Below, piece by piece: positions 23,617 to 29,851 of a stretch of DNA of 64,000 bases. The notes beneath the pieces are model-generated. The model did not search any database. It was given only the letters and a program-made list of their open reading frames with translations, and had not been told where the DNA came from. A program made the position numbers and the translations under genes. Position 1 is the first letter of the stretch. The number at the start of each line of letters is the position of its first letter. Location: NCBI GenBank assembly GCA_039105265.1, contig JAPFFF010000018.1, forward strand, positions 2,108,001 to 2,172,000. Direction: 5' to 3'. The DNA comes from Tritrichomonas musculus (taxonomy: Eukaryota; Parabasalia; Tritrichomonadida; Tritrichomonadidae).

Positions 23617-24945
23617 TTATTCAAAATGGATAACCTTTATATTATCTAAGCAATAATTTAAAGGATTTTTGGCATGCTCATTTAAGATTTGAACCAATGC
23701 AGAGTTTTCACTTTGATTTGCTAAATCCAAACATGTTTTTTTAATACAACTAACAGTACTCTTATTGATTCCAATAAAATCATTTTTGATTTCCTTCCAC
23801 CACGAATCAAACCTATCAATTCCTTTTTCATTTTCAACATCATGCTTTGTTTGCTTATATCCATAAAAATAACGAGGAAAAAAAGAATTGATATCAGTAT
23901 ATTTGCAATTAATGATCGAATTTTCAATATCAAAGTTAATTTTTTGACATGATAGTAAAAGTTGGACAATATTTAAAATTCCTTCTTCAATTGCTAAATG
24001 TATAGGAGCCTTTTTTCTTTGATTGAATTACATGTGAATGTATCATAAAAATATCCAATCTTTGTAATCGAAGATTGAAGATTAACATTGATACTTTTAT
24101 TTGATAATAAAAGCCGAAGAATTTCAAAATCTTTATTCTTGATCGCCATAAACAAAGCAGTTCTCTTTTTCATCAATCCAAAATTATTATCATCTCCATC
24201 ATACGACCAATTTTCAAGGTTAACATCAATATTTAGACATGATAATAATAATTTTACGATTTCTATATTTCTTTTCTTCAATCCAAAATGTGCAATGAAG
24301 TCATTTCTTTTCGCAAGATAATCTCATCATCTAAATTAATGATTTGTCTCAAAATTTGATTGACCAATCAAAGTTGAAAGTGGTAAATTATATGATTTTA
24401 TATGCGAAATAAAATCATCAATCAAATCATTTTGAATTAATTTGCATATGTAACTATCGTTTTCCATTTGTCTTTGATAAAATATTTTTTAGAATATTTT
24501 CGTCTTGGATGAAAGATTTAATTTCTGGTGCAAAATATAATGGATAGCTTGCTTTGATATATTTGCCACATGTCATAGAATGAGCAATATATGAATCTGG
24601 TTTGATCAATCCTTCTTCAAATAAAAAGAGGTGGCTTTTTTTGTTATTTTTGAAAATATTAAAAATCTCGGTGTTTGAAAAATAATTGCTGATTTCTTCG
24701 GTAAAGTGTAAAATAATATTCAAAATTTTTGAAAGAAAATTATTTTTGCGATTATGGTTATTAGAAATTTTTGAAATTAAATGGAGTAATTCTTGAAAGT
24801 CTTGCTTGCTTTTTTGAATTTGCTGCTCTTCAGAATTTTGCTCTATATTTTGATATATTTCTTCCGTTCTCTCTTCCTCAATAATATATTCATGAATACT
24901 GTCTTGTATCATCTTCTTTTTCTCCAAATATTCTTTAATTTCCAT
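23617..24945 (-). pseudogene. DUF3447/ankyrin-repeat protein, frameshifted
   Basis: The ATG at 24945 opens 163 codons of the DUF3447-type N-terminal domain typical of trichomonad ankyrin proteins (MEIKEYLEKKKMIQDSIHE, then FLSKILNIILHFTEEIS, then PLYFAPEIKSFI). The continuation is recovered only by changing frame near 24465 (MENDSYICKLIQNDLIDDFI), again near 24330 into ankyrin repeats (RNIEIVKLLLSCLNIDVN, then EILRLLLSNKSINVN), and again near 24010 (APIHLAIEEGILNIVQLLLS). It ends at a TAA at 23617. At least three frameshifts and none of the short inserts seen in the next ankyrin gene, so this is ordinary decay. Intact paralogues are abundant in trichomonad genomes. Confidence 0.82.
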
Positions 24946-25563
24946 TCTCAGCTAAAGAAATAAACATAAATAAATATTAATTTTTTCAATTATTCATTTG
25001 AATTTAGAATAATTATCATAATAAAAATCTTGTATCTTATAAATAAAAAGATTTTTATTTATTAAAATTATATTCACATTATTAATATAAAATAATATAA
25101 ATAATTTATTTGTTTTTTAATATGAATTAAATCATGTAATCGCAGAAATTATAAATGTTCTTTATTTCAATATTGAACAACTTTGTTTAGATATAAAAAT
25201 CATATTATACTAATAAAATCATAACATTACTTTTAATAAAACAATAATATATGCGATAGAATTATTATTAAAAGTAAAAGTTATAAAATATTTATTATGA
25301 AAACATTATGAAATATTTTCATGTTTTCTTATTCATTATTACAAATCAGAGATTAAAATCTGTATTAATACTGAAAATCGAAAACTTATGATTATAAAAT
25401 GCATCTATATAATATAGACCAAAAAGATATAAAACTAATCCAAATTTTTTTTAACAATATTTTCTAGAAAATATAATAACTAATATAATATTATTATTTT
25501 TATTACATAGTAAATGAAATAGCAATTATTATTTTTATTACAAAGTAAATAACAACATGATTT
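24946..25563. other. intergenic region, very AT-rich
   Basis: No gene, RNA or clear repeat seen, apart from two near-identical short AT words at 25510-25555 (gcaattattatttttattaca-like, duplicated in tandem). Confidence 0.4.
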
Positions 25564-28118
25564 CTAAGTGCTCACTTGCCTGGGAATTTTAGGCATTTTC
25601 AAGCGAATCATGCTAGCAATCTCTGTCAATTTACTCCTACAAGCAGCAATATAAGGTGTTTGATAAAAAAAAATTTTTAAAAATTCCACAATAAGAAAAA
25701 AATTGCATATAAAACTCTGTCAGCAATTCCAACGTCAATCATTGGATGATTCAAAAGGATCTGAACAATTTTTCTATCACCAGATCTAGCAGCCAAAAGC
25801 AGCGGAGTAACACCAAAAATAAAAAGAAATAGAAACGTTATAAAAAAACAAATAAATTAAAAACAACATCGCTTTGATTGATATCAATTTCAGGATGAGT
25901 CATTAATAATTCAACAAATTCAACATTTTTCTTTGAAATTGCCCAATGCAAAGCAGTTTGACCAAGTAAATTGGCTGAACAAACGTCAATTCTTGGATCA
26001 TTTATTAAAACCTTGGCTGTTTCAATTTTTTCCCGATCAACACACCATTGTAAGGCGGTTGTTAACAAATTATCTTTCATGTTGACTTCAATGTCAGGAT
26101 GAGCTAATAAAAGTTTTAAAATATTAACATAACCACGATCAGCAGCATCATGAAGAGGAGTTCGATGAGAAAAATATTAATCTTTAAAATTCCTAAAACT
26201 CGTTTTTTATTTATCTCAATTTTTGAATACTTTACAAGTAACTCAACAGTTTCAAAATGTCCTCGACTTGAAGCAGAATGAAGAGCGGTCCATCCAAGAC
26301 CATCACCAATATTTACATCAACATCTTTATTATTAAGTAAAAGACGAACAATTTCATAATTACCAGAATCTGATGCTCTTTCAAGTGCTGTCTGACCTGC
26401 ATTGTTTTTGGCATTTATATCAATGTCAAACGAATTTATTAGAATTCGGGCAGCTGCTATTTTGTTATTAATTGCGGCTAAGTGAAGTGGAGTTCGATCA
26501 AAATAATAAAAATGAAAATTCCTGATTGTTGTGCTTTCCTATATCGTTTCGATTCTTTTTCTACTATCTCTACTTGCTCTTTAGGATTTATTCGGCGCGT
26601 TGCCGGCATATTGAGAACAAACACCGTATCAGTTGATTTTCCATCTTTTGAATTAACATCAATTTCAGTAAATGCAATCAAATAATTTAAAATTGATGGA
26701 TAACCACACTCGGCAGCAACGTGAAGTAGTGTTACACCATTTTTATCGGCATTATTTGTTTCAATTCCTGGCTGTTCAACGAAAAAAGTAACAAGTTGTT
26801 CTGAACCACTTGCAACGGCATGATGAATTGGTCTTCGATAAATTTATTTTATAAATAAAACGCCTGCTGTATTTTTCTTATTCAAGTCTTTTGTTAATTG
26901 AAAAAGTGCTTTACAAAATGTAATGTGACCGTAAAAAGCAGCAGCATGCAAAGCTGTATTTCCACTCTTATAACCTTCATTTATTTTCCATCCTGTCGTG
27001 AATAAATGAAGAAAGATACGAAGATTATTAGAAATAACGGCTTTTTGCATTATATTAAAACCACTCTTGTCTTTTAATGATACTTTATCTAGCTTTTCAA
27101 TATGAAGCTTAAAAAATAATTCATTATGATGAAATTCAATTGAGAGATGAAGCGACGATTTGATTGGTATATTTAATGTAAAAAGATAATTTGTGATTAT
27201 GTTATGACCACTCATCGTTAAAAAATCACTTAAAGGTCGTCCAGTTTCATCAGGAATTTCTATTTTTGCATGATGCTGTAACAAAAATCTAAAACATCGC
27301 ACTGAACCACATAATGCACTATATTGAATAAGCGTTGGCCTATGCTGCTGATAATCTGATCTCGCAAATATAGTTGATTCAATATGCTGATTTATATCAA
27401 AAAGTGAACCTTTTGATAAATGCGTAAGATAAGTTAACTGGTCGTGCTCTATTACTGATGAAACTAAAAAAGGATCAAATTCATAATCTCGACGTGATTT
27501 GAATATTTTCCAATCATTTTCTTTTAATTTCTCAAATTCTTCGAAATATGAATGAAAAACTCGCTGAAGAAAAGGATCTTCGTCTTTAAATTCAAATAAT
27601 TTGAGTAAGCTAAAGTAAAAATCTTCATTACAATCCTCTATTTCAGGTGCAAAAAGACAAAAAAGCCACTTTTTGGATTTTATAGATATCAAAGTTTCAG
27701 GCTTGTAAAGCGACGATATTGCAATAAATTCACGAAACGTTAATACCTCTTGATTGATTAATTGATATAGAAAGTATGGAACAGATGTATTTTCTGGAAA
27801 TGGATTTGGAAGCGATAAGACATTAATTATCAATTTAATTAAATGCATTCGAAATTCTGAAAGCTGATAGTATTCATTATTATACTCAAGCAATTTTTTA
27901 ATAAAGACAGCGATTGTAGATATTTGGCTTGGCCGTATTTTAATAGTATACATAATTGCACTTAATAAATGAGGAACTTCTTCTTTTTTGTTTGTGAATT
28001 TTGATGAGAGAATTTCGGTAATTGCGTTTGCCATTCGTGTTTTAGTTAAATTCACAATAAGTTCTTGCATTTGAACATATGGACTAAGATTTGAAACTAA
28101 TAAATCTTTATCTGCCAT
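25564..28118 (-). CDS. ankyrin-repeat protein interrupted by five short AT-rich inserts
   Basis: ATG at 28118, stop TAG at 25564-25566. The first block (28118-26862, 419 codons) has a helical DUF3447-like N-terminal region (SPYVQMQELIVNLTKTRMA, then LFAPEIEDCNEDFYFSLLKL) and the first ankyrin repeats. Five further open blocks follow: 26837-26520 (106 codons), 26496-26191 (102), 26164-25862 (101), 25814-25716 (33) and 25662-25564. All continue the ankyrin consensus (RTPLHLAA, GQTALERAS, GWTALHSAS, RTPLHDAAD, GVTPLLLAA). Joining them gives about 790 residues with some ten ankyrin repeats. Each gap is a 23-53 nt AT-rich insert, some frame-breaking and one with an in-frame TAA. Open blocks argue for an expressed gene whose inserts are removed; a recent pseudogene is the alternative. 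An AACTTTTTGA word lies 63 bases upstream of the ATG. Confidence 0.7.
25663..25715 (-). other. AT-rich insert 5 in ankyrin gene (limits uncertain)
   Basis: Maximum extent 53 nt, between GCT GAC AGA and CAA ACA CCT. The 22 nt at its 3' end follow the GGA|ATTTT...AT|CAA pattern of the other inserts, so the real boundary may be internal. Confidence 0.5.
25815..25861 (-). other. AT-rich insert 4 in ankyrin gene (limits uncertain)
   Basis: About 47 nt (up to 53) between codons for NQSDVV and GVTPLLLAA; contains an in-frame TAA when read through. Confidence 0.55.
26165..26190 (-). other. AT-rich insert 3 in ankyrin gene, 26 nt
   Basis: Lies exactly between GGA (Gly) and CGA ACT CCT (RTP) of an ankyrin repeat; begins ATTTTAAAG and ends CTCAT. 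The length is not a multiple of three. Confidence 0.65.
26497..26519 (-). other. AT-rich insert 2 in ankyrin gene, 23 nt
   Basis: Lies exactly between GGA (Gly) and CGA ACT CCA (RTP); begins ATTTTCATT and ends TTGAT. The length is not a multiple of three. Confidence 0.65.
26838..26861 (-). other. AT-rich insert 1 in ankyrin gene, 24 nt
   Basis: Lies exactly between GGC (Gly) and CGA AGA CCA (RRP); begins GTTTTATTT and ends TTTAT. A multiple of three but with an in-frame TAA, so read-through would terminate. Confidence 0.65.
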
Positions 28119-28435: not shown

Positions 28436-29851
28436 TTAATCAGCAAATGGATCCGACTCAGTTTTTTCTTCATCCTCATCTTTTTCTTCGCTTTTATCTT
28501 CATCCTCATCTTTTTCTTCGCTTTTATCTTCATCATCATCTTTTTCTTCGCTTTTATCTTCATCATCATCTTTTTCTTCGCTTTTATCTTCATCATCATC
28601 TTTTTCTTCGCTTTTATCTTCATCATCATCTTTTTCTTCGCTTTTATCCTCATCATCATCTTTTTCTTCGCTTTTATCCTCATCATCATCTTTTTCTTCG
28701 CTTTTATCTTCATCAAAATCACTTTTCATCGTGCTCTCAAAATCATCTTCCATATTTTCTGAATCCTTTTCTTTTTCAGATTCGTTGTTTTCACTTTTAT
28801 CTTCTTTTTCTTCATCATCATTGTCTGAATTTTTGCTCTCCTTTTCTGACTCGTTGTTTTCGCTATTTTCTGTTTCATGTTCACTCTTTTCTTTATCTTC
28901 TTCACTCTTTTCCTTATCATCTTCATTTCCACTTTCATTGTCACTCTTTTCTTTATCACTTTCATTTTCTTTGTCACTTTCATTATTATCAAATGATTCT
29001 TTTTCACTTTCACTATTTTTCTTACCAGTATTTGCAAGGGCACTATTAATGCTTTGGAATGTGTCGCCAAGCGTGTTATTATTTGTAGCTATATTTTGAT
29101 TATCAGCTTCACTTGCACCAAGTGCATCTGATTCGTATTCTTGACTTTCTGGCTCTGTTTGCGTTTGCGAAACTAAAACTTTTCGTTTGTATCTTGAAGA
29201 TGAATCATTTGAAGGTTCTTGAATTGTAACACCATTTCTTTTATTGCCACGTGCTGAATTGGGCTGATTTGAAGGTGGTGTAATTGGACATTGCCCAAAT
29301 GAAATATAGTTACCACTTCGCTGAGACCTAGCAGAAGCAGGCCCTTGGTCAGTAACTTGCATACCATCTTCTAAACCAGTTGGTTCATATAATTCTCCAG
29401 CTGTGATTTGTTCGTTATCGTCTGGGAAAATAATTTTTGCTGCAGCTGGAGTTCGATAAGTACGTTGTGATTGAAGAGGACGGAGTTGCAGTTGTTTTGA
29501 GAAAGAAGTAGATGCTGGAGACTGTTTACTGGTCTTAACTTTACCTAGCTCAGCAATCCAATCACGCGTCGTACCAGGTCTTCTTTGCTTTTTTCTTGCC
29601 ATTTCTCGATCTTTGTAAGTTTTTCGAAGCATTGCAATACATTGATCATCCAACTTCTTTTGCGATTTACGATAATCTTCGGATTTCTTTCTATAAGCGA
29701 CAAGACGAGGTGCCATTGGAATTTCTGTCATCTCGATATCAGGCTTCATTGCATTAATTGTATCAACATGTCGAGCATATCTCCTTCTTCTGTCTAAAAT
29801 CGTATAATAACTCTGTGAAACTGCGATTGTGACTCTTAACTTATTATCCAT
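28436..29851 (-). CDS. acidic repeat protein, function unknown
   Basis: 471 residues, ATG at 29851. The basic N-terminal 105 residues contain an Arg/Lys-rich helix (RRRRYARHVDTINAMKPDIE, then RKTYKDREMARKKQRRPGTT). Residues 105-265 are Ser/Pro/Gln-rich and probably disordered; 270-380 are Glu/Ser/Asn/Lys-rich; the C-terminus (about 385-465) is eight tandem copies of a 10-residue unit DEDKSEEKDD, ending TESDPFAD. The net charge is strongly basic at one end and acidic at the other. No family recognised. The antisense strand is open over the repeat because of its composition only. Confidence 0.8.
   Translation of the reverse strand: MDNKLRVTIAVSQSYYTILDRRRRYARHVDTINAMKPDIEMTEIPMAPRLVAYRKKSEDYRKSQKKLDDQCIAMLRKTYKDREMARKKQRRPGTTRDWIAELGKVKTSKQSPASTSFSKQLQLRPLQSQRTYRTPAAAKIIFPDDNEQITAGELYEPTGLEDGMQVTDQGPASARSQRSGNYISFGQCPITPPSNQPNSARGNKRNGVTIQEPSNDSSSRYKRKVLVSQTQTEPESQEYESDALGASEADNQNIATNNNTLGDTFQSINSALANTGKKNSESEKESFDNNESDKENESDKEKSDNESGNEDDKEKSEEDKEKSEHETENSENNESEKESKNSDNDDEEKEDKSENNESEKEKDSENMEDDFESTMKSDFDEDKSEEKDDDEDKSEEKDDDEDKSEEKDDDEDKSEEKDDDEDKSEEKDDDEDKSEEKDDDEDKSEEKDEDEDKSEEKDEDEEKTESDPFAD
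28480..28720 (-). repeat. 30-bp coding tandem repeat, about 8 copies
   Basis: Thirty-base units encode DEDKSEEKDD, differing only by synonymous changes and by Asp/Glu swaps in the last copies. Confidence 0.9.

What the first reader, a model, noticed from the sequence alone, without database searches (positions are those of the whole stretch)
25564..26862. Five short AT-rich inserts at homologous positions of ankyrin repeats, with atypical intron boundaries
Seen: on the minus strand, open ankyrin-coding blocks (419, 106, 102, 101, 33 and 32 codons) are separated by inserts of 24, 23, 26, about 47 and up to 53 nt. Inserts 1-3 fall exactly between the Gly codon and the following Arg codon of the G-R-(T/R)-P repeat start; all three match GG(A/C)|(A/G)TTTT...AT|CGA. 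Two are not multiples of three and one carries an in-frame TAA, yet every block stays open and in register with the ankyrin consensus. Known: trichomonad introns described so far have GTATGT-like 5' ends and ACTAACACACAG 3' ends, and very short ones (about 23-25 nt) are reported; these inserts have neither motif. Inference: an ultra-short intron class with new boundaries, copied with the repeat unit, or another removal process. Only about half the repeats carry one.
Basis: partly seen in the sequence, partly recalled or inferred. Interest (0 to 1): 0.76.

Follow-up and report, generated by a model that had tools for sequence, protein, structure and literature searches.

The report
Tiny introns with odd ends
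A trichomonad ankyrin gene is interrupted by tiny T-rich inserts that recur at the same protein-repeat position in related genes and species and look like a new kind of ultra-short intron ending in AT instead of AG.

Summary
The inserts are real and not confined to this gene. On the minus strand, six open ankyrin blocks (28118-25564) are separated by inserts of 24, 23, 26, about 47 and 53 nt. Relatives, including Tritrichomonas foetus TRFO_20500 (68% identical), have inserts of other sequence and length at the same positions; other relatives read straight through at single sites. In the window's own 193-Mb genome, 9 of 12 ankyrin loci that I fetched by place (chosen for short frames) carry inserts just before the x codon of the G-x-T-P repeat start. 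Across 18 bounded inserts (19-26 nt, one of 53) 17 begin RTTTY; by a strict frame rule 17 end AT, 16 YTNAT, none AG. 20,000 shuffles never reach these counts. Paralogs also hold ordinary GT-AG introns with CTAAC or CTAAT branch sites at such points. Best explanation: a non-canonical ultra-short intron class, probably excised by the major spliceosome, whose only conserved 3' element resembles a branch site at the intron's last base. No RNA evidence was available, several inserts fit the 3' rule poorly, and no convincing example was found in non-ankyrin genes.

The parts
26862..28118 (-). Block 1 (419 codons, ATG at 28118): N-terminal region plus first ankyrin repeats
   Evidence: relatives P0001-P0006
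26838..26861 (-). Insert I1, 24 nt, GGC|GTTTTA..TTTAT|CGA, in-frame TAA
   Evidence: read through as a 20-nt insert in P0004 (T. foetus); frames of P0003 and P0005 end there; empty in P0002, P0006
26520..26837 (-). Block 2 (106 codons, ankyrin)
26497..26519 (-). Insert I2, 23 nt, GGA|ATTTTC..TTGAT|CGA
   Evidence: frame of P0002 ends there, P0016 reads through an insert, empty in P0006
26191..26496 (-). Block 3 (102 codons, ankyrin)
26165..26190 (-). Insert I3, 26 nt, GGA|ATTTTA..CTCAT|CGA
   Evidence: read through in P0015 and P0016, frame of P0017 ends there, empty in P0006
25865..26164 (-). Block 4 (100 codons, ankyrin); contains the G|Q site that is filled (I3b) in P0023 and P0024 but empty here
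25818..25864 (-). Insert I4, about 47 nt, GTT|GTTTTT..TATT|TTT; boundary can slide; lies two codons before the G|x point
   Evidence: frames of P0023 and P0024 end there, empty in P0022 and P0006
25716..25817 (-). Block 5 (34 codons, ankyrin)
25663..25715 (-). Insert I5, 53 nt, AGA|GTTTTA..TTTAT|CAA
   Evidence: read through in P0022, frame of P0006 ends near there
25564..25662 (-). Block 6 (32 codons and stop): start of a last repeat and C-terminus; no Pfam match on its own

Best explanation
The inserts are a class of ultra-short introns in ankyrin-repeat genes of a Tritrichomonas-type parabasalid. They sit at the tip between repeats, just before the x codon of G-x-T-P, are mostly 19-26 nt and sometimes longer, begin (A/G)TTT(T/C) and mostly end (C/T)TNAT. 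Shown: position, motif, variable presence, and coding blocks that stay open on both sides. Inferred: they are cut out of the pre-mRNA, most likely by the major spliceosome, because true GT-AG introns occupy such sites in paralogs, four of those five share the GTTT 5' end, and the genome has U2 and U6 snRNA genes. Also inferred: YTNAT acts as a branch-site-like and 3'-end signal in one, with the splice at its last base.
For: Conserved position with drifting sequence and length in relatives, and empty sites in others with the protein intact. Lengths are not biased to multiples of three (5 of 18). In 18 bounded inserts from 9 genes: 5' RTTTY in 17 (10 of 10 where the flank is GGN), 3' AT in 17 and YTNAT in 16 by the strict rule, AG in none; 20,000 letter shuffles never reach the first four counts (maxima 6, 5, 11 and 7). 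Held-out loci: L055 has 3 inserts, 3 of 3 fit both ends though longer than predicted; the other, L056, has no insert. GT-AG introns with CTAAC or CTAAT: 5 in 3 loci. Close paralogs L045/L047: exons 564/564, 302/306, 175/180, 58/78 and 52/57 identical, last insert 13 matches in 21-24 nt, one insert present in only one copy. Sites I1-I3 and I3b map two residues before a repeat's first helix in a model of P0006; I4 and I5 lie within about two codons of such points. U6 (2 copies, just below Rfam's cut-off, ACAGAGA box intact) and U2 (6 copies over cut-off) present.
Against: No transcript was seen. No AG and no fixed internal branch site. If the A of YTNAT is the branch point, only one base separates it from the splice junction, far less than any spliceosome known to me allows (recalled). 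Exceptions: I4 ends AT only after sliding by one base; L049b begins GTTCT; L053a ends TAAAT; L053b sits before the Gly; P0016 I3 reads ..TT|CGG; L044 has one long insert ending TTTTT and one ending ACAAT. No convincing case in non-ankyrin genes: 264 kb including the window gave 4 motif hits, two of them the window's own I2 and I3, against 1-3 in five controls; 24 other loci gave 4 against 0-1 in four controls, of which one (L033) was not looked into. U1 was not found by its Rfam model, which the tool calls uninformative.
Confidence: 0.68

Rival explanations
1. The inserts are removed from RNA, but not by the spliceosome: an endonuclease and ligase, as in tRNA or HAC1/XBP1 splicing, or an unknown activity cuts at RTTTY and YTNAT.
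For: No GT-AG pair and no separate branch site; +1 may be A or G; the classical trichomonad 3' motif is not enriched in the genome.
Against: GT-AG introns occupy such sites in the same genes and four of five share the GTTT start. 16 of the 18 inserts were folded: z-scores lie between -0.01 and 0.57 where defined, and 11 have no structure at all, so there is no helix that would bring the ends together.
Confidence: 0.17
2. The genes are decaying pseudogenes or silent cassettes with AT-rich insertions.
For: A neighbouring ankyrin-type gene (24951-23617) is broken by plain frameshifts; L054 has a plain frameshift.
Against: Blocks stay open in the relatives and paralogs seen, inserts recur at one codon boundary with a shared motif, and relatives keep the same repeat order at 44-84% identity over block 1.
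Confidence: 0.08
3. Inserts are translated as loops, with programmed or transcriptional slippage on T-runs restoring the frame when needed.
For: Some inserts are in frame and open (I3b in P0023 and P0024; I2 in P0016; L045c, L047d, L049b); the site is a surface loop.
Against: Only 5 of 18 lengths are multiples of three; I1 and L048a contain in-frame stops; the net shift differs from insert to insert.
Confidence: 0.04
4. The inserts are recombination or mobile-element footprints removed at the DNA level.
For: Presence and absence at one target, and an 'empty' copy in a close paralog.
Against: Read from the sequence: no target-site duplication at I1-I3 (boundaries cannot slide without changing the sequence) and no shared internal sequence. 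No DNA elimination is known to me in parabasalids (recalled).
Confidence: 0.03

Closest known systems
Type B (short) spliceosomal introns of Trichomonas vaginalis and T. stableri
   Same: 23-28 nt, T-rich middle, degenerate 5' end with T at +8/+9, found among others in repeat-protein genes (PMC12316389: abstract and Results read; PMC6260720: passages).
   Different: Introns reported there are GT..AG with a CTAA-type branch site 7-8 nt before the end; ours have A or G at +1, end AT, and have no separate branch site.
Non-canonical introns of diplonemids and euglenids
   Same: Lack GT-AG, removal mechanism open (PMC12621601: abstract and Discussion read).
   Different: Those have strong base-pairing between their ends; ours fold no better than shuffles (16 of 18 tested) and are very short.
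GT-AG introns of this same genome (L045, L047, L049)
   Same: Same genes or gene family, same point before x-T-P, GTTT start in four of five.
   Different: 35-37 or 234 nt, CTAAC or CTAAT branch site, end AG, followed by TGG in all five.
U12-type introns with non-AG ends
   Same: A or G at +1 and tolerance of non-AG ends (recalled).
   Different: No RTATCCTT 5' site among the 18 own-genome inserts; no U12 or U6atac match (the tool calls these negatives inconclusive).

Membership tests
Canonical trichomonad spliceosomal intron (types A and B) | GT at the 5' end | tested here: not met
   A at +1 in 12 of 18, G in 6 of 18; T at +2 in 18 of 18
Canonical trichomonad spliceosomal intron (types A and B) | AG at the 3' end | tested here: not met
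   0 of 18 end in AG
Canonical trichomonad spliceosomal intron (types A and B) | CTAA-type branch site shortly before the 3' end | tested here: not met
   Read from the 18 sequences: no CTAAC; YTNAT at the very end in 16 of 18 by the strict rule
Spliceosomal intron in general | Excised from pre-mRNA by the spliceosome (lariat) | not testable with these tools
   No RNA data here; U2 and U6 genes present
U12-type intron | RTATCCTT 5' site, TTCCTTAAC branch site and a minor spliceosome (recalled) | tested here: inconclusive
   Motifs not seen in the 18 sequences; no U12 or U6atac match, but nothing rang in the controls either
Euglenozoan non-conventional intron | Base-pairing between intron ends | tested here: not met
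   16 of 18 inserts folded singly; none clearly better than its shuffles
Translational bypass element (byps) | Matched take-off and landing codons (recalled) | tested here: not met
   5' codon GGN in 10 and GAA in 4 of 18, last triplet of the insert NAT (read by eye)

The most novel reading that the evidence does not exclude
Introns that end at their own branch site: the 3' splice junction lies one base after a YTNAY branch adenosine, with A or G at +1 and no AG. This would need a second splicing step unlike that of any known spliceosome, or a separate excision machine dedicated to repeat-protein genes.
Probability: 0.33. Interest if true: 0.93.

Novelty: new variant of a known kind. Interest (0 to 1): 0.77.

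Why it matters
If confirmed, these would be among the shortest introns known and a coherent non-GT-AG class in a lineage thought to be almost intron-free. The published T. foetus annotation reports at most two exons per gene (PMC11415386, passages), so six-exon genes like this one would be mis-annotated. They would also test how close a branch site can be to a 3' splice site, and whether introns are gained at one protein-loop position repeatedly.

Tried and rejected
Canonical motif search in the window found 0 matches to ACTAACACACAG with up to 2 mismatches, chance mean 2.2. Genome-wide, ACTAACACACAG gave 6 against 29 for the reversed control, and RCTAACAATNNAG gave 282 against 272, so GT-AG introns cannot be counted by that motif alone. 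A coding-frame Viterbi survey of 264 kb gave 63 'genes' with inserts and was too noisy, mostly antisense artefacts.

Motif-bounded scans outside ankyrin genes found nothing convincing; 25 hits against 10, 19, 25 and 38 in four controls (GT..AG 195), many of them the window gene itself; 4 hits, two of them I2 and I3, against 1-3 in five controls; 4 hits in 24 non-ankyrin loci against 0-1 in four controls; in the 12 ankyrin loci 8 hits (6 of them in my set) against 0-1. Hits checked: 1912650 and 2076030 are antisense or non-coding; 2155794 lies inside a 1139-codon ORF and the L043 hit inside a Mob1 match without stops (by place only); the L044 pair led to another ankyrin gene; L033 was not looked into. 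Mob1: 20 matches, none with a stop inside the match. Viral and GTDB contigs held no relative. Boundaries shifted by +1 to +3 also keep G-x-T-P; I prefer the unshifted register because it keeps Arg at I3 in the window, P0015, P0016 (both back-translated) and P0006.

Dropped before the 18-insert count: window I4 and the second insert of L051 (boundaries ambiguous), L054 (plain frameshift), the five GT-AG introns, the three L055 inserts (held out) and the two L044 inserts (found later). Ankyrin loci fetched by place without inserts: L050, L054, L056. One search folded 16 of the 18; L048b and L053a were not folded. A 29-nt candidate near the start of a HECT gene was not followed up.

Full report
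Source. The window is G000:C18:2108001-2172000 of a 193,395,805-base genome in 746 contigs. The closest named protein to the gene is Tritrichomonas foetus TRFO_20500, 68-69% identical, so this is a tritrichomonad-like parabasalid; the species itself is not named by any tool.

Observation. The gene runs on the minus strand from 28118 to 25564. Blocks of 419, 106, 102, 100, 34 and 32 codons are separated by I1 (24 nt), I2 (23), I3 (26), I4 (about 47) and I5 (53). I1-I3 sit exactly between Gly and Arg of G-R-x-P. I4 lies two codons before the G|x point, and I5 directly before the x codon (Gln) with the two preceding residues missing. A random 100-codon frame in this region stays open with probability about 8e-4. 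Pfam ankyrin models match blocks 2-5 one by one; block 6 (32 residues) matches none.

Relatives by protein. An insert is read through, so that its length is known, in P0004 = T. foetus at I1 (20 nt, then CGA ACA), P0015 at I3 (23 nt), P0016 at I2 (63 nt if all of it is removed) and I3 (20 nt), P0023 and P0024 at the extra site I3b (24 and 30 nt), and P0022 at I5 (43 nt). In P0003 and P0005 (I1), P0002 (I2), P0017 (I3), P0023 and P0024 (I4) and P0006 (I5) the frame merely ends within a few residues after the site, which fits an insert but does not measure it. Sites that read straight through: I1 in P0002 and P0006; I2 and I3 in P0006; I3b in the window, P0022 and P0006; I4 in P0022 and P0006. 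Boundaries in relatives come from protein letters, so only the possible codons are known. P0002/P0023 and P0016/P0022 seem to share contigs, judged from equal contig lengths only. The pattern is what introns do: exons conserved, position conserved, sequence and length free, presence variable. It speaks against simple copying with the repeat unit.

Paralogs in the same genome. Searching block 3 against the genome gave 143 ankyrin matches (best 150 candidates scored). Eleven lie in open frames under 250 codons, two of these being the window gene's own blocks; the rest lie in longer frames, up to 3515 codons. The best paralogs sit in frames of 108-219 codons, the block size of the window gene. 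I fetched 12 ankyrin loci by place, chosen for short frames (L045-L056). Nine carry inserts (L045-L049, L051-L053, L055) and three do not (L050, L054, L056). Two kinds of insert occur. Kind one is an ordinary GT-AG intron: two in L045 (35 nt each), two in L047 (36 and 37 nt), one in L049 (234 nt, GTATGT start), all with CTAAC or CTAAT and all followed by TGG. Kind two is the window's class.

Consensus of kind two. Eighteen bounded inserts from nine genes (window and L045-L049, L051-L053) have A at +1 in 12 and G in 6, T at +2 and +3 in 18, T at +4 in 17, and A-T as the last two bases in 18 when L053b is placed before its Gly. By the strict rule (boundary three bases before the T-P-like codon pair) AT ends 17 and YTNAT 16, while AG ends none. 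RTTTY begins 17, and 10 of the 10 whose flank is GGN. In 20,000 letter shuffles the maxima for AT, YTNAT, RTTTY in all and RTTTY in the ten were 11, 7, 6 and 5. For the eight inserts whose flank is not GGN I set the 5' boundary with the motif in mind. The prediction was then written down and two more loci were obtained. L055 has three inserts: all begin ATTTT and end YTNAT directly before the x codon, but they are 112, 93 and 46 nt long, outside the predicted 19-30 nt, and their 5' starts were again partly my choice. L056 has no insert.

Close paralogs. L045 and L047 lie about 25 kb apart on one contig. Their exons match at 564/564, 302/306, 175/180, 58/78 and 52/57 bases, so the 3' part is less alike. 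The GT-AG introns differ only by one or two gap positions in runs of T. The last insert has 13 matches, 8 mismatches and 3 gaps, and one 23-nt insert is present in L047 only. Whether that is gain or loss cannot be told from two copies.

Where in the protein. In an AlphaFold model of the relative P0006 (mean pLDDT 75, ankyrin part mostly above 90), the G|x points of I1-I3, I3b and I4 fall after residues 279, 383, 485, 553 and 587; each time two residues lie between that point and the next helix. In the window I4 itself lies two codons before its point. For I5 the model ends before a further helix.

Mechanism. Shown: position, motif, variable presence, open flanking blocks. Inferred: removal from RNA. 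Lengths fall 5, 4 and 9 of 18 into the three residues modulo three, and I1 and L048a contain in-frame stops, so simple translation fails for most. The major spliceosome is present: U6 (2 copies at 42-42.5 bits, just below the cut-off of 44, ACAGAGA intact) and U2 (6 copies over cut-off). U1, U12 and U6atac gave no match, but the tool says this does not show absence. Kind-two inserts share the TTT 5' start with the GT-AG introns of L045/L047. Within their first and last eight positions the only fixed adenosine is the A of YTNAT, which matches the general branch-site consensus YTNAY (recalled). That suggests an intron reduced until branch site and 3' end coincide. A one-base distance is hard to reconcile with known spliceosome geometry (recalled), so a separate excision activity is kept as the main rival. 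No end-to-end pairing was found (16 of 18 inserts folded).

Limits. No RNA was examined. Kind two was not found convincingly outside ankyrin genes in 264 kb around and including the window or in 24 other loci totalling 76,614 bases; those scans see only inserts of about 18-29 nt whose interior is out of frame or holds a stop, and one hit (L033) was not looked into. Two hits led to another ankyrin gene (L044, beside a Mob1 gene) whose two longer inserts fit poorly: one ends TTTTT, one ACAAT. Window I4, L049b (GTTCT start), L053a, L053b and P0016 I3 are further partial exceptions.

Literature. Reported T. vaginalis introns are all GT-AG with a CTAA-type branch site, the shortest 23 nt (PMC12316389: abstract and Results read). 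Type B introns of 25-26 nt are described in PMC6260720 (passages). The T. foetus annotation has at most two exons per gene (PMC11415386, passages). A T. foetus review calls the genome intron-poor (PMC12428144, passages). The main text of PMC6679479 does not contain the word Tritrichomonas. Diplonemid non-canonical introns pair their ends (PMC12621601, abstract and Discussion). Searches on Trichomonas or Tritrichomonas introns, parabasalid introns, trichomonad ankyrin introns, non-canonical introns, short introns, AT-AT introns and branch-point distance listed nothing whose title or abstract start describes this class; for papers not named above only listings were seen, and subscription journals and bioRxiv itself are not held.

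Noticed in passing
window 23617-24951 (-): Neighbouring ankyrin-type gene broken by plain frameshifts and stops (read by eye); looks like a decaying copy. One break is a 32-nt stretch starting TATTTTT and ending TTCAAT before CAA.
   Followed up: partly
G000 whole genome: The trichomonad 3' intron motif ACTAACACACAG occurs 6 times in 193 Mb against 29 for the reversed control, so classical introns with exactly that motif are not enriched.
   Followed up: partly
L045 1030-1064 and 1371-1405; L047 (minus) homologous sites; L049 GGT|GTATGT..CATAG|TGG: Five GT-AG introns before ankyrin x-T-P codons with CTAAC or CTAAT branch sites, all followed by a TGG codon.
   Followed up: partly
L044 (minus strand), C18:1720101-1723589: An ankyrin gene next to a Mob1 gene has two longer T-rich inserts that fit the YTNAT rule poorly.
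   Followed up: partly
G000:C7:5899307-5899411 and C19:719277-719377; six U2 places: Two near-identical U6 genes and six U2 genes; no U1 match by the Rfam model.
   Followed up: no
L055 (C2:9462601-9463200): A repeat gene in which successive ankyrin-like repeats are separated by AT-rich inserts of 112, 93 and 46 nt.
   Followed up: partly
C18:2064442-2064470 (-), in L024: Possible 29-nt AT-rich insert (CAG|TTTATTAC..TTTATTT|ACT) near the start of a gene whose product resembles a HECT-type protein (by eye); it does not end in AT.
   Followed up: no
window about 28470-28720 (-): Acidic 30-base tandem repeat (about eight copies, counted by eye) at the end of the upstream gene 28436-29851, with an antisense open frame 28447-29049.
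   Followed up: no
G000:C5:6926829-6937731: Regularly spaced pattern hits (steps of 591 or 651 bases for most) suggest a tandem array.
   Followed up: no
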